Shown here piece by piece: positions 5,009 to 17,325 of a stretch of DNA of 64,000 nt. Within the stretch, counting starts at the first letter, position 1. Each line of letters opens with the position of its first letter. The notes beneath the pieces are model-generated. The model was not told the DNA's origin, did no database searches, and saw only the letters and a list, made by a program, of their open reading frames with translations. A program made the position numbers and the translations under genes. Origin of the DNA: Candidatus Binatia bacterium (lineage in GTDB: Bacteria > Desulfobacterota > Binatia > HRBIN30); the NCBI GenBank assembly GCA_026415395.1, contig JAOAHD010000020.1:1-64000 (forward strand), given 5' to 3'.

Positions 5009-5656
5009 CTACCGCCGCGTTCGTGCACTGCGCGCGCCCGCGCCGACGAGCAAAGCGAGCAGCGCGAACCAAACAGCAGTGCCCCTGTTCGTCGGGTCGA
5101 TCATGCAACCACCGCCGCCCGGCGGCTGCAACACGTGAACAACACCATCGTCGGCGCTAGCGGTGACGGTGACACCGTTTTGCGCGGCAGCGTCCGGGTC
5201 GATGACCCGCACCGGATACGTGCCCGGAGAAGCGCTCCCAGCGATACGCACGGTGCAGCGGAACAATTCCCCAGAGGGCAAATTCGGCTGTGCTCCGGAA
5301 AGATCGACAAACGGCGCCCGTACGGTGTCGCACTCGTCATCCTCGTACCGGCACCCGACCGGCCAAAACACAAATTGGCCAGGGGTCGATACGGCTTCGT
5401 GCGCGCTACAGTCGGGCCGTCCGTCACTGTTGGCCACGACATTCACATTCCTAGGATCGGAAAAAAAGAGTGCGAGACCCACGGAAGAAGGGGCGGCACC
5501 GTTCGCGCCGTGGGACACCGACAAGGGAACAGTCCACCCCGGGTAGCCGCTAGTCTCTGCCGCGTCGACCAACACCTGGGCCAAACAACGAGGCACGGCC
5601 AAAACCACGACCATGGCCGCAACGCCAAGCCGACCCCACTGACGACAGCGAGCCAT
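5009..5656 (-). CDS. Exported cohesin-like domain protein with C-terminal Cys/hydrophobic/Arg anchor
   Basis: The 215-residue protein has a signal peptide (LGVAAMVVVLAVPRCLA). A single beta-sandwich of about 145 residues follows, opening VLVDAAETSGYPGWTVPLSV and continuing with NSDGRPDCSA, GQFVFWPVGC and LFRCTVRIAGSASPGTYPV. This layout matches the cohesin-like domains I know from Binatia exoproteins, with two probable disulfides. It ends GGGGCMIDPTNRG, a 16-residue hydrophobic segment (VWFALLALLVGAGARS) and TRR, a tripartite tail resembling MYXO- or JDVT-type sorting signals, so it is probably surface or outer-membrane anchored. It is first in an apparent operon with the EF-hand-tailed protease and beta-propeller genes, which suggests a cohesin/dockerin-like partnership. 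It is intact, unlike its neighbours. Confidence 0.7.
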   Translation of the reverse strand: MARCRQWGRLGVAAMVVVLAVPRCLAQVLVDAAETSGYPGWTVPLSVSHGANGAAPSSVGLALFFSDPRNVNVVANSDGRPDCSAHEAVSTPGQFVFWPVGCRYEDDECDTVRAPFVDLSGAQPNLPSGELFRCTVRIAGSASPGTYPVRVIDPDAAAQNGVTVTASADDGVVHVLQPPGGGGCMIDPTNRGTAVWFALLALLVGAGARSARTRR

Positions 5657-13150: not shown

Positions 13151-13822
13151 ATGGCCGCGAGAACGAGAAAACAACCGCAGGCAGCGCGCACTACCCGCCG
13201 GCCGCGCGGGCGGCCGCGCGACGAGCGCAAGCGGAGCGACATCATTGCCGCGGCCCGGCGCATCTTTTTCGCCGCTGACCCCCGCAAGCTGCGCATGGAA
13301 CGGATTGCCCGCGAGGCGGGAGTGTCGAAGGCCACGTTGTATGCCTACTTCCCCAACCTCACCGAACTGCTGCGCGCGGTCATCCAAGACCACCGTGCGA
13401 GCATGACCCGTGCGCTGGACCGGCTCCCGCAAACCACCTCTGACGTTCGGGCTTCTCTCGTCGAGTTCGGGACCCGCTTGGTCGAGTTCCTCACCAGCAG
13501 CGAAACCGTTGCGTTGCAACGCATGCTCGCTGCCGAGCCGTCTCTCCGCCAGCGCTTGGGCCGGTTGATTTACCGCGAAGGACCCGAAACGATGCGGACA
13601 AAAGTGGCACGCATTCTTTCTGCGGCCGAGGCCCGCGGGGACTTGCGCCCTCACGACAGCCAGCGAGCCGCCGAGCAGTTGCTCGGCATGTGGCAGGGAA
13701 TCGTGAGCATCGGCCTTCTCATTGGCGGGCGCCCGGCGCCGAGCCGGAAGGAGCGCGAGCGGGCGGTCGAACACGCTGTCGATGTGTTGCTGCGCGCCTA
13801 CGGGCCGTCGCCGAACGGCTGA
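13151..13822 (+). CDS. TetR/AcrR-family transcriptional regulator
   Basis: The 223-residue protein has a basic N-terminus (RRPRGRPRDERKRSDIIAAARRIFF) leading to a TetR helix-turn-helix (MERIAREAGVSKATLYAYFPNLTELL, about 54-79). An all-helical ligand/dimer domain follows, containing LQRMLAAEPSLRQRLGRLIY. It is divergently transcribed from the RND adaptor, the standard layout of a local efflux repressor. Ligands are probably pump substrates. The very short intergenic gap means its transcript has almost no leader or that its promoter lies inside the adaptor gene. Confidence 0.93.
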   Translation: MAARTRKQPQAARTTRRPRGRPRDERKRSDIIAAARRIFFAADPRKLRMERIAREAGVSKATLYAYFPNLTELLRAVIQDHRASMTRALDRLPQTTSDVRASLVEFGTRLVEFLTSSETVALQRMLAAEPSLRQRLGRLIYREGPETMRTKVARILSAAEARGDLRPHDSQRAAEQLLGMWQGIVSIGLLIGGRPAPSRKERERAVEHAVDVLLRAYGPSPNG

Positions 13823-13832
13823 GTGCGCAGCG

Positions 13833-14294
13833 CTACGAGGAGAAACGAGGAGGGCGACACTGCCCGCTCTTTTGCCGGAGCGAGGCAGCGCCAACGCACA
13901 AAACCAACAATGCGAGGGCTATTCCAGCAACGCCCGTGAGAACGGGCACGGTCGAGACCTCTGCCCTCTGGCATTCCCGCAAGAAGAGAGTGTTCTCCCT
14001 TTGGATGTTCAACTCCTGAAGGGTTGCATCGTCGGGAAGTTCCTGGCCACCAAAGACCAAGCATTGTTCGCTGACCGGGATGCCGATCCTATCCTGAATG
14101 AGCTGTTTTACGAAACCGATCGTGTCTGTCGGCTCAACTTCGAGGGTGATCGTCGTACCAGGAATGGTGCGGACGAAAATCTGCATGGCCAGGGTAGGTC
14201 GAGACATGACAAACAGCACGCATGCGGGCGCGAGGGACAAGATTCGCAAGCAAACCAGGATTTCCTTTATAGATTTGGTTCGGGCCCGTCTCAC
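13833..14294 (-). CDS. Secreted, membrane-anchored ubiquitin-like protein
   Basis: This 153-residue protein has three parts. Residues 1-36 are an export signal ending SRPTLA. Residues 37-106 begin MQIFVRT and continue TITLEVEPTDTI, IQDRIGIP, LVFGGQELPDD and LNIQRENTLFL, giving about 40 identities over 70 positions to eukaryotic ubiquitin with no gaps. Residues 107-153 form a linker, then [20 protein letters not shown] plus SLRQK, resembling an IPTL-CTERM sorting tail. Signal cleavage at LA-MQ would recreate ubiquitin's natural N-terminus. Ubiquitin K27 is kept; positions 6, 11, 29, 33, 48 and 63 are R, T, L, R, Q, R; I44 is V. There is no RGG end, so conjugation is unlikely. The start is GTG. 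The gene is convergent with tetR, 10 bp apart. Confidence 0.85.
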   Translation of the reverse strand: MRRARTKSIKEILVCLRILSLAPACVLFVMSRPTLAMQIFVRTIPGTTITLEVEPTDTIGFVKQLIQDRIGIPVSEQCLVFGGQELPDDATLQELNIQRENTLFLRECQRAEVSTVPVLTGVAGIALALLVLCVGAASLRQKSGQCRPPRFSS

Positions 14295-14642
14295 GGAATA
14301 CCACCCGCTTCTAGACCGCCCGACCCCTACAACGTAAAAGCTCTGTTATGCAACTCTGCGCGGTAGGCGGTCTGCGTTCACAAGGCTCACCCCAGCTCGG
14401 GGCCTCGGCTTGGGCTTCGCAAAAAGATCCGGAGAGCGTCTCTGGATTGCCAGGCGGGCATCACCGGCGCCCGCCCGATTTTTCCGCGCACCAGGAGCGA
14501 CTCCTTCTTCTCGGCCCCCAAAAAGCGGCGGAACAACAACTTCGCCGTGAGCAGAGCGGCGCTGATTTGGCCACCGCGTTAGGAGCCCTCTGCGCGGCGA
14601 CCGCGGGCCGAGCGCCGCTCGAAGTTGGAGGCACCTCTCGGG
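14295..14642. other. Intergenic region with a short start-less open frame
   Basis: It lies between the HIT gene and the ubiquitin-like gene, both on minus. A minus-strand open frame of 63 codons (14387-14578) reads with coding-like composition (LLFRRFLGAEKKESLLVRGK), but it has no ATG start and matches no family I know. It could be a small unrecognised gene or the 3' remnant of one. It should also hold the promoter of the ubiquitin-like gene. Confidence 0.4.
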
Positions 14643-15176
14643 CTACTCCCCAGCAAAGTGGGGTTTGAGCTTCTCGTAAATTGCCTGCAAGTGGTCCGGC
14701 ATCACCTTTACACCCGCAAGCACCGGCATGAAGTTGGTGTCGCCAATCCAACGCGGGACGAGGTGCCAATGCAAGTGGTCAACGAAACCGGCACCAGCCG
14801 CTTGTCCGAGGTTGAGCCCAATGTTCATTCCTTCGGGCTTGTACACCTCCTGCAAAACGACAGCGGCGCGTTGTACGACCTTAAGGAGCTCGCAGGCTTC
14901 TTCTGCAGGCATCCCGGCGAAATCCGCAGTGTGCCGGCGCGGTGCCACCATCAGATGAGCCGTGGCATAGGGAAACTTGTTGAGCATGACCACGGCGGGC
15001 GAGGTGCTCAACACATATTGCTCGGCTGGATCGTTCGCATCGCGGGCACGGCAAAAGATGCAGGTGGGATCCTTGGGTCCACTCAGGTAAACGCCGCGCC
15101 AAGGAGCCCACAGGACTTCGACCACTTCCCCCTCTCCCTGATTCCGCGTGGGCAACCGCCGCTTACGCTTGTCCAC
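14643..15176 (-). CDS. HIT-family nucleotide hydrolase/transferase
   Basis: The 177-residue protein has the histidine triad HLHWHLV at 134-140 (HxHxH), preceded by an N-terminal CIFC motif at 39-42. The cofactor-fold segment LNKFPYATAHLMVAPRRH lies between them. This is the Ap4A phosphorylase-like branch of HIT proteins found in actinobacteria and deltaproteobacteria, acting on dinucleoside polyphosphates or adenylylated substrates. The GTG start has AAGGTG just upstream. It follows ihfB by 62 bp and is probably the last gene of the aromatic/rpsA supraoperon. Confidence 0.9.
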   Translation of the reverse strand: MDKRKRRLPTRNQGEGEVVEVLWAPWRGVYLSGPKDPTCIFCRARDANDPAEQYVLSTSPAVVMLNKFPYATAHLMVAPRRHTADFAGMPAEEACELLKVVQRAAVVLQEVYKPEGMNIGLNLGQAAGAGFVDHLHWHLVPRWIGDTNFMPVLAGVKVMPDHLQAIYEKLKPHFAGE

Positions 15177-15561: not shown

Positions 15562-17325
15562 TTAGGATTGCGGCGGTTCTTTCTTTTCCGTCTCTGCCCG
15601 CAACTGTTCGGCCATGATGTCCTGCAGAGAGAAGCGGCCCTGGTTGCGGTCGCGCTGCAGGTACGACTCCATTTCCATCCGCTCCTCCGTACGCCGCAAC
15701 GCGCGGATACTCAGGCTAATCTTCCGATCCTTCGGATCCACCAACGTGACTTCCGCCTCGACCTCTTGGCCGGGCTGGAAGAGATCCTGCGGTCGATCCA
15801 CCCGCTCATGGCTCAACTGAGAAACATGGATGAGTCCTTCGACGCCCTCTTCGAGCTCGACGAAGACACCAAAGTCGGTAACCGAGGTGACTTTGCCGCG
15901 CGCCCGACTACCCACGGGGTACCTCTGCGCCATGGTGTTCCAGGGATCCTCCGTGAGCTGTTTCACGCCGAGAGCAACCCGCTCGTGCTCAGGATCGATG
16001 CTCAACACTACCGCCTCGATCGTGTCCCCTTTTTTGTACAACTCAGAGGGATGCTTGATCTTCTTCGTCCAGTGCATGTCCGACACGTGGACCAGGCCAT
16101 CGATGCCTTCAGCAATCCCCACGAACACGCCGAAGTCGGTAATGTGTTTCACGACGCCCGTGATGCGCGAGCCCACCGGATGGTTGATGCGGAGCAAGTC
16201 CCACGGATTAGGGACGGCCTGTTTCAAGCCGAGAGAGATCCGTCGATTTTCCTCATCGACGTCCAACACCACAACCTCGACTTCTTGGTTGGGCTCCACG
16301 ACCTTCGAGGGATGAACCACACGCTTGGTCCACGACATCTCCGATACGTGCACTAATCCCTCGACCCCGGGCTCCAATTCCACGAAGGCACCGTAATCGG
16401 CGATGTTCACCACCCGGCCGCGAACCCGCGAACCTACAGGATAGCGCTCCGCCACTCCTTGCCACGGATCTGGCATGATTTGCTTCATGCCGAGCGACAC
16501 CCGCCCGCGGTCCGGATCATATTTCAGCACTACGACCCGCACACGCTCGCCCACTTTCACCACATCCGACGGATGGTTCACCCGGCCCCAAGCCATGTCG
16601 GTGACGTGCAACAAGCCGTCGATGCCGCCGAGGTCCACAAAGGCTCCGTAGTCCGTGATGTTCTTGACCACGCCCTCGAGAATCACGCCCTCTTCGAGCA
16701 CGGCCAGCGTTTCCCGGCGCATTTGCTCGCGTTCTTCCTCGATGACCTTGCGCCGCGACAAGACGACGTTGCCCCGAGAGCGGTTACACTTAATTACGGC
16801 AAACTGCGCCCGCTGGCCGATAAAGCGATCGAGCGAGCGGACCGGGCGCACATCCACTTGCGAAGCAGGAAGAAACGCGGGCACGCCCACGTCGACTTTG
16901 AGACCACCCTTCACTTTTCCAACGATGACCCCTTCAATCGTCTTCCCTGTTCGCTCTGCTTTTTCGATATCGCTCCACACCCGCAGCTGTTCGGCTTTCA
17001 CCCGCGACAGGCGCACACCGCCCATGTCCGGGTCGAGCGCGACTACATACACATCGATCTCGTCGTCAGGCCGTACTTCAACGTTGCCTTCGCGATCAGT
17101 GAACTCTTCAACTGGAATGGTTCCTTCGGACTTGTAACCAATGTCGACGGTTACGGCATCGTGTGACACATGGACCACACGACCACGAACGACCTGCCCT
17201 GGGCGAGGCGCGCGGGTGCTTTGTTCGAAAAGCTCCCGAAAGTCGTTCTCGCTGCTGGACGCAGCTTCATCTCTTGCTTGTTCCATGTACGGGGTACCCC
17301 CTGGGGCTGAGTTCCGGTTCTTCAT
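15562..17325 (-). CDS. rpsA: 30S ribosomal protein S1
   Basis: The 587-residue protein has six S1 (OB-fold) repeats. The first two are divergent and ribosome-binding (GYKSEGTIPVEEF; GGLKVDVGVPAFLPASQVD). The four RNA-binding repeats carry the signatures ITDYGAFVDLGGIDGLLHV, IADYGAFVELEPGVEGLVHV, ITDFGVFVGIAEGIDGLVHV and VTDFGVFVELEEGVEGLIHV. It unfolds and recruits mRNA at the ribosome. ATG 17325 (MKNRNS) has AGGTG upstream; ATG 17286 (MEQARDE) is an alternative. It directly follows cmk, the near-universal cmk-rpsA pair. Confidence 0.97.
   Translation of the reverse strand: MKNRNSAPGGTPYMEQARDEAASSSENDFRELFEQSTRAPRPGQVVRGRVVHVSHDAVTVDIGYKSEGTIPVEEFTDREGNVEVRPDDEIDVYVVALDPDMGGVRLSRVKAEQLRVWSDIEKAERTGKTIEGVIVGKVKGGLKVDVGVPAFLPASQVDVRPVRSLDRFIGQRAQFAVIKCNRSRGNVVLSRRKVIEEEREQMRRETLAVLEEGVILEGVVKNITDYGAFVDLGGIDGLLHVTDMAWGRVNHPSDVVKVGERVRVVVLKYDPDRGRVSLGMKQIMPDPWQGVAERYPVGSRVRGRVVNIADYGAFVELEPGVEGLVHVSEMSWTKRVVHPSKVVEPNQEVEVVVLDVDEENRRISLGLKQAVPNPWDLLRINHPVGSRITGVVKHITDFGVFVGIAEGIDGLVHVSDMHWTKKIKHPSELYKKGDTIEAVVLSIDPEHERVALGVKQLTEDPWNTMAQRYPVGSRARGKVTSVTDFGVFVELEEGVEGLIHVSQLSHERVDRPQDLFQPGQEVEAEVTLVDPKDRKISLSIRALRRTEERMEMESYLQRDRNQGRFSLQDIMAEQLRAETEKKEPPQS

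What the first reader, a model, noticed from the sequence alone, without database searches (positions are those of the whole stretch)
13833..14294. Exported, membrane-anchored bacterial ubiquitin with its lysines and GlyGly removed
Residues 37-106 align without gaps to eukaryotic ubiquitin at about 40 of 70 positions (counted by eye), far closer than ordinary bacterial ubiquitin-like folds (ThiS, MoaD, TtuB). It sits behind a signal peptide whose predicted cut (TLA-MQIF) regenerates ubiquitin's own N-terminus, and before a hydrophobic/basic tail like IPTL-CTERM. Six of seven conjugation lysines are substituted (two by Arg), K27, the buried structural one, is kept, and RLRGG is missing. No E1, E2 or JAB gene is nearby. 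This suggests the fold was recruited as an extracytoplasmic display or protease-resistant domain. It could come from a eukaryote or from a little-studied bacterial lineage of ubiquitins.
Basis: partly seen in the sequence, partly recalled or inferred. Interest (0 to 1): 0.88.

Follow-up and report, generated by a model that had tools for sequence, protein, structure and literature searches.

The report
Exported, membrane-tethered bacterial ubiquitin lacking lysines
This bacterium carries an inserted gene for a ubiquitin that is sent out of the cell, anchored by a tail, and stripped of the parts used for protein tagging; it is an extreme member of a scattered, barely described set of exported bacterial ubiquitins.

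Summary
ORF 13833-14294(-) encodes 153 aa: signal peptide, a true ubiquitin domain (PF00240, 74 bits; 41/69 identities to human ubiquitin; AlphaFold pLDDT above 90), then a VPVL-transmembrane-basic tail. Six of seven lysines are gone (three to Arg, not two), as is GlyGly. All 16 fold-core positions are kept, so it is not simply decaying. It is no contaminant: it fills an 820-bp gap between TetR and HIT genes that nearly abut in both sister species. Nor is it unique: one scan found 339 related loci across many phyla, cultured isolates included. Most of those kept have a signal peptide cut just before MQIF and a varied C-terminus (autotransporter barrel, repeats, IPTL-CTERM, none). Where the tail is IPTL/VPxL-like, the genome tends to encode exosortase H (7/10 strong or near-threshold, against 0/14). 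Two phage-like contigs carry such genes. The published precedent is BfUbb, a secreted Bacteroides fragilis ubiquitin that antagonises other strains. Best reading: an exported, tethered, non-conjugating ubiquitin domain, perhaps handled by an XrtH-like exosortase, acting outside the cytoplasm. Its partner and effect are not shown. A new variant of a known kind.

The parts
13833..14294 (-). CDS of the exported ubiquitin, 153 aa, GTG start
14187..14294 (-). signal peptide, residues 1-36, basic n-region, hydrophobic helix 9-29, predicted cut TLA|MQIF
   Evidence: sequence; hydropathy 2.57; helix in model; no SignalP available
13980..14186 (-). ubiquitin domain, residues 37-105
   Evidence: PF00240, alignment, AlphaFold and Foldseek
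13836..13949 (-). C-terminal tail, residues 116-153: VPVL motif, TM helix 121-143, RQK, 11-residue end
   Evidence: sequence; TM helix in model; no IPTL-CTERM hit
14301..14306 (-). possible ribosome-binding site GGGTGG, 6 nt before the GTG
   Evidence: sequence; weak, by eye only
13823..14642 (.). species-specific insert between convergent TetR and HIT genes (gap 820 bp here, about 45 bp in G071 and about 100-125 bp in G072)
13151..13822 (+). flanking TetR-family regulator, conserved in sister species
14643..15176 (-). flanking HIT-domain protein, conserved in sister species

Best explanation
A horizontally moving gene for an exported ubiquitin. The protein is exported by Sec, signal peptidase I cuts at TLA|M so that the mature protein begins like ubiquitin (inferred), and the domain folds outside the cytoplasm as ubiquitin (fold predicted with high confidence). 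It stays tethered by the C-terminal VPVL-TM-basic tail, which may be processed by one of the genome's two XrtH-like exosortases and handed to the cell surface (inferred). It cannot work by GlyGly conjugation. I think it acts non-covalently as a displayed or shed binding domain in contacts with other cells, most likely other bacteria, as shown for BfUbb (inferred, about 0.35). Its ubiquitin-specific surface has been replaced while the fold was kept.
For: Domain and fold. Export layout shared: a hydrophobic segment precedes the domain in 75 of 89 relatives, usually ending in an AxA-like site right before MQIF. The same minimal layout (signal peptide, ubiquitin, short TM tail; 130-150 aa) recurs in a Desulfobacteraceae MAG, two gammaproteobacterial MAGs, Marinobacterium iners and phage-like contigs. 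A partial copy with a VPLL-TM-RRRR tail is in family member G075. XrtH at 60 bits or more in 7/10 genomes with IPTL/VPxL-like tails against 0/14 with other C-termini (Fisher p about 0.0004 from these counts; over the curated cut-off 4/10 against 0/14, p about 0.02). In M. iners the gene lies in a glycan cluster 10.4 kb from xrtH. Own genome has two XrtH-like enzymes (84.7 and 82.1 bits, cut-off 86). Fold under selection: 16/16 core positions kept, P 5e-5. Insertion. Mobility of relatives. BfUbb precedent: PMC5705921, PMC3352274.
Against: The window tail does not match the IPTL-CTERM model and runs 11 residues beyond RQK, unusual for an exosortase signal; a plain membrane anchor would explain it. 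Neither XrtH-like enzyme reaches the curated cut-off and neither is near the gene. BfUbb has no tail. No expression or activity data. Only one copy, so selection on this lineage is inferred from the pattern of kept residues.
Confidence: 0.72

Rival explanations
1. A ubiquitin acquired as a mimic or decoy against eukaryotes (grazers or hosts), now released or displayed to interfere with their ubiquitin system or ubiquitin receptors.
For: Most relatives keep 60-71 of 72 residues of eukaryotic ubiquitin, lysines included. BfUbb inhibits ubiquitination in vitro (PMC3352274).
Against: In this copy the Ile44 patch (L8I, I44V, H68F, V70R), lysines, R42, R72 and GlyGly are all changed, so known ubiquitin receptors and E1 should not bind well. 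A membrane tether fits poorly with delivery into a host cell.
Confidence: 0.12
2. A gene on its way out: a horizontally acquired exported ubiquitin drifting after insertion, with no current function.
For: It is the most divergent copy found, with a long branch (1.07). The copy in a family member is already truncated. Neither sister species has it.
Against: Open frame throughout. All 16 core positions are kept while the surface changed (P 5e-5), codon differences to relatives fall mainly on third positions (e.g. 19/20/49), and signal peptide and tail are intact. Much of this may reflect selection before the insertion.
Confidence: 0.15
3. The tail is only an inner-membrane anchor and no exosortase is involved; the domain works in the periplasm.
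For: No TIGR04174 match for the tail; 11 residues follow the basic cluster; XrtH-like genes unlinked.
Against: VPVL/VPLL motif in window and G075; close parallels in genomes with XrtH; two exosortases present.
Confidence: 0.35

Closest known systems
BfUbb of Bacteroides fragilis (PMC3352274, PMC5705921)
   Same: Ubiquitin with a signal peptide cut so that the mature protein starts at ubiquitin residue 1; no C-terminal glycine; strain-restricted gene in a bacterium; a Cys near the end of the domain.
   Different: BfUbb is a 76-residue secreted protein, 63% identical to human ubiquitin, with shown antibacterial activity and no TM tail; the window protein has a TM tail, lost nearly all lysines, and its activity is unknown.
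SP-ubiquitin-IPTL-CTERM proteins (e.g. L061 Thiohalocapsa, L005 Acidovorax, L089 phage-like contig)
   Same: Signal peptide, ubiquitin starting MQIF, C-terminal [IV]PxL-TM-basic tail.
   Different: Their tails pass the IPTL-CTERM cut-off and they keep all or most lysines; the window tail does not pass and only K27 is left.
Ubiquitin-autotransporter fusions (L006, L007, L020, L048, L085)
   Same: Exported ubiquitin at the predicted mature N-terminus.
   Different: PF03797 beta-barrel at the C-terminus in place of a TM tail.
Ruminococcus albus plasmid 'ubiquitin family protein' WP_013483628.1
   Same: Signal peptide plus ubiquitin domain, mobile replicon.
   Different: Longer C-terminal region, lysines kept.

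Membership tests
Ubiquitin family (PF00240) | sequence match over the curated cut-off and beta-grasp fold of ubiquitin | tested here: met
   74 bits against 25.4; AlphaFold and Foldseek, TM-score about 0.9 to monomeric ubiquitin targets, rmsd 0.5-0.8 A
Conjugating ubiquitin system | C-terminal GlyGly, exposed or exposable by a protease | tested here: not met
   LFLRECQRA after the domain
Conjugating ubiquitin system | cognate E2 in the genome | tested here: inconclusive
   no PF00179 hit, but the controls did not ring either
Conjugating ubiquitin system | cognate E1 and JAB-type protease in the genome | not tested
   not searched; none annotated by eye next to the gene
BfUbb-type secreted ubiquitin | signal peptide with cut before ubiquitin residue 1 and no C-terminal GlyGly | tested here: met
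   by sequence and hydropathy; cleavage itself not tested
BfUbb-type secreted ubiquitin | free 76-residue product without membrane tail | tested here: not met
   TM helix 121-143
BfUbb-type secreted ubiquitin | growth inhibition of related strains | not testable with these tools
   needs an assay
IPTL-CTERM / exosortase H substrate | tail matches TIGR04174 or PF18203 over cut-off | tested here: not met
   no hit for the window protein; tails of L005, L017, L049, L061 and L089 do hit
IPTL-CTERM / exosortase H substrate | genome encodes XrtH (TIGR04177) | tested here: inconclusive
   two exosortases whose best model is XrtH, at 85.2 and 82.5 bits, just under the cut-off of 86
ThiS/MoaD sulfur carriers | ThiS/MoaD sequence match and terminal GlyGly | tested here: not met
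   no such Pfam hit; no GlyGly

The most novel reading that the evidence does not exclude
Exported ubiquitins form a widespread, phage- and plasmid-borne class of bacterial surface or secreted effectors, some displayed by exosortase H, and the window gene is a descendant that has shed the whole tagging surface of ubiquitin to become a new extracytoplasmic binding or antagonism domain.
Probability: 0.35. Interest if true: 0.85.

Novelty: new variant of a known kind. Interest (0 to 1): 0.62.

Why it matters
Ubiquitin is treated as a eukaryotic tag; the 2017 BfUbb paper calls B. fragilis one of a few bacteria with a eukaryotic-like ubiquitin. Here 339 related loci turn up across species-level genomes, mostly exported among those read, with repeated fusion to surface-display modules, phage carriage and co-occurrence with an exosortase. 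That makes two questions testable: what ubiquitin does for bacteria outside the cell, and which parts of ubiquitin are kept for folding when conjugation is no longer under selection.

Tried and rejected
Contamination: rejected; one contig, flanks syntenic with two sister species. ThiS/MoaD origin: rejected. Placing the gene by tree: tried, unresolved; AU tests reject neither a grouping with eukaryotic ubiquitin nor the Q28 grouping. Gln28, found in 38 of 84 relatives and in the window, is at most a hint of bacterial kinship. Calling the tail IPTL-CTERM: rejected for the window itself. Mobile-element ends around the insert: no repeats of note, no RNA or tRNA nearby. Close relatives in viral contigs by the window sequence alone: none. 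Match in the phage collection: none. A DNA pattern for other VPxL tails in the own genome gave one uninformative hit. A first codon comparison read the wrong record and was redone. Literature beyond BfUbb: none found in the held library.

Full report
What is there. The minus-strand ORF 13833-14294 starts with GTG and encodes 153 residues. Pfam's ubiquitin family matches residues 39-105 with 74 bits, against a cut-off of 25.4, and human ubiquitin aligns gap-free with 41 of 69 identities. It is the only PF00240 match in the genome. AlphaFold gives the domain pLDDT of about 91-97, with helices at 9-29 and 121-143 on either side; Foldseek's best matches are solved ubiquitins, mostly at 0.5-0.8 A with TM-score about 0.9 to monomeric targets.

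Fold kept, surface replaced. All 16 positions I listed from general knowledge as ubiquitin's buried core (including K27 and Q41) are identical to human ubiquitin, P 5e-5 for that concentration of identities. The Ile44 patch (L8I, I44V, H68F, V70R), R42, R72 and all exposed lysines are changed, and GlyGly is gone. Differences to relatives fall mainly on third codon positions (19/20/49 against L049). So the domain was under selection to fold, not to be conjugated or to bind common ubiquitin receptors. Whether that selection continues after insertion cannot be told from one copy.

Not contamination, but an insertion. The gene sits between convergent TetR and HIT genes. In both sister species these two genes end about 45 bp (G071) and about 100-125 bp (G072) apart; here the gap is 820 bp. 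Of 147 other genomes of the class only one, G075 in the same family, has a match, and it holds only the second half of ubiquitin plus a tail VPLLSRGMGVVLVAMLSLVALLALNRRRR, at another place. The ORF has 56% G+C against 63% for the window. No notable flanking repeats, tRNA or known RNA were found.

A large scattered set of relatives. A scan of one genome per species (84,980 species) found 339 relatives, of which 80 were kept, from Pseudomonadota, Actinomycetota, Bacillota, Verrucomicrobiota, Bacteroidota, Cyanobacteriota, Fibrobacterota, Synergistota, Methanobacteriota and others. Cultured isolates are among them (Rhodoferax lacus, Conexibacter, Dyella, Marinobacterium iners, Thiohalocapsa marina, Pseudovibrio, Leeia), plus a plasmid of Ruminococcus albus. 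In 75 of 89 relatives a hydrophobic segment precedes the domain, usually ending in an AxA-like site directly before MQIF. A few without it (L028, L073, L080, L087, L088, L092) may be eukaryotic or eukaryotic-virus sequence. Frequency is low: one further genome in 398 Pseudomonadota. The scan favours copies close to ubiquitin, because it needs a near-exact peptide seed, so divergent copies like the window's are undercounted.

Architectures. C-termini include autotransporter barrels (PF03797 in five of ten checked), GLUG repeats, IPTL-CTERM tails, or nothing at all. The window belongs to a minimal class of signal peptide, ubiquitin and short TM tail, as in L049, L055, L060, L066 and L089-L091.

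Exosortase link. Tails of L005, L017, L049, L061 and L089 pass the IPTL-CTERM cut-off; those of L083, L066, L060, G075 and the window do not. Genomes in this tail group encode XrtH over the cut-off in 4 of 10 cases and at 60 bits or more in 7 of 10, against 0 of 14 genomes whose ubiquitin has another C-terminus. In M. iners ubiquitin and xrtH share a glycan-synthesis cluster (gene names there by eye), 10.4 kb apart. The window's genome has two exosortases whose best model is XrtH, slightly under its cut-off. The comparison is small and not corrected for relatedness, and the groups partly differ in taxonomy.

Phage carriage. In L119/L089 the SP-ubiquitin-IPTL gene lies just before terminase, portal and major head genes. 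In L085 an SP-ubiquitin-autotransporter gene lies beside a minor tail protein gene. This fits cargo genes of temperate phages and would help explain the scatter, but no phage gene was seen next to the window's copy.

Phylogeny. Seventy residues do not resolve it: the window is a long branch (1.07) inside ubiquitin, in a weakly supported group rich in Gln28 (85/78), and AU tests reject neither alternative. The eukaryotic reference sequences in the tree were written from memory. Origin from a eukaryote at some point is likely for the whole set, from general knowledge of ubiquitin's distribution, but was not shown here.

Comparison with the known. BfUbb of B. fragilis is the precedent: signal peptide, mature start at ubiquitin residue 1, no terminal glycine, secreted, and toxic to other B. 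fragilis strains (PMC3352274, PMC5705921). The window protein differs by its membrane tail and its altered surface. The 2017 paper calls B. fragilis one of a few bacteria with such a protein; I found no survey of the wider set in the held library, which lacks most subscription papers, so absence of a description is not proven.

How it most likely works. Shown: domain, predicted fold, insertion, wide set of relatives, association of similar tails with XrtH. Inferred: export, cleavage at TLA|M, tethering, possible exosortase handling, and a non-covalent role outside the cytoplasm in contact with other cells. The last step is the weakest, about 0.35.

Noticed in passing
L119 (L089:1872-2318), IMGVR_UViG_3300011515_000002: A phage-like contig carries a signal peptide-ubiquitin-IPTL-CTERM gene just upstream of terminase, portal and major head genes; near-identical copies in L090 and L091.
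   Followed up: partly
L085:1890-3335, IMGVR_UViG_3300027773_000160: An exported ubiquitin-autotransporter fusion next to a phage minor tail protein gene; its lysines are also partly lost (K11G, K29Q, K33L, K48I).
   Followed up: partly
L116:5026-5418 and 15820-16344 (Marinobacterium iners): Exported ubiquitin gene inside a glycan-synthesis cluster that also holds exosortase H.
   Followed up: partly
L002:1318-1713 (G075): Partial ubiquitin (second half only) with an intact VPLL-TM-RRRR tail in a genome of the same family; probably a decayed copy.
   Followed up: partly
window 5009-5656 (-): Secreted-looking 215-aa protein ending GGGGCMIDPTNRGTAVWFALLALLVGAGARSARTRR, a Gly-rich/Cys/TM/Arg tail resembling a sorting signal; no Pfam or NCBIfam match.
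   Followed up: partly
L007, L036 (Prochlorococcus single-cell genomes): Exported ubiquitin in marine cyanobacteria; in L007 it is fused to an autotransporter barrel (Pfam), in L036 apparently the same by sequence.
   Followed up: partly
L011, L032, L042 (Methanotrichaceae): Signal peptide-ubiquitin proteins in methanogenic archaea MAGs; in L032 the domain is followed by what look, by eye, like SdrD-type repeats.
   Followed up: no
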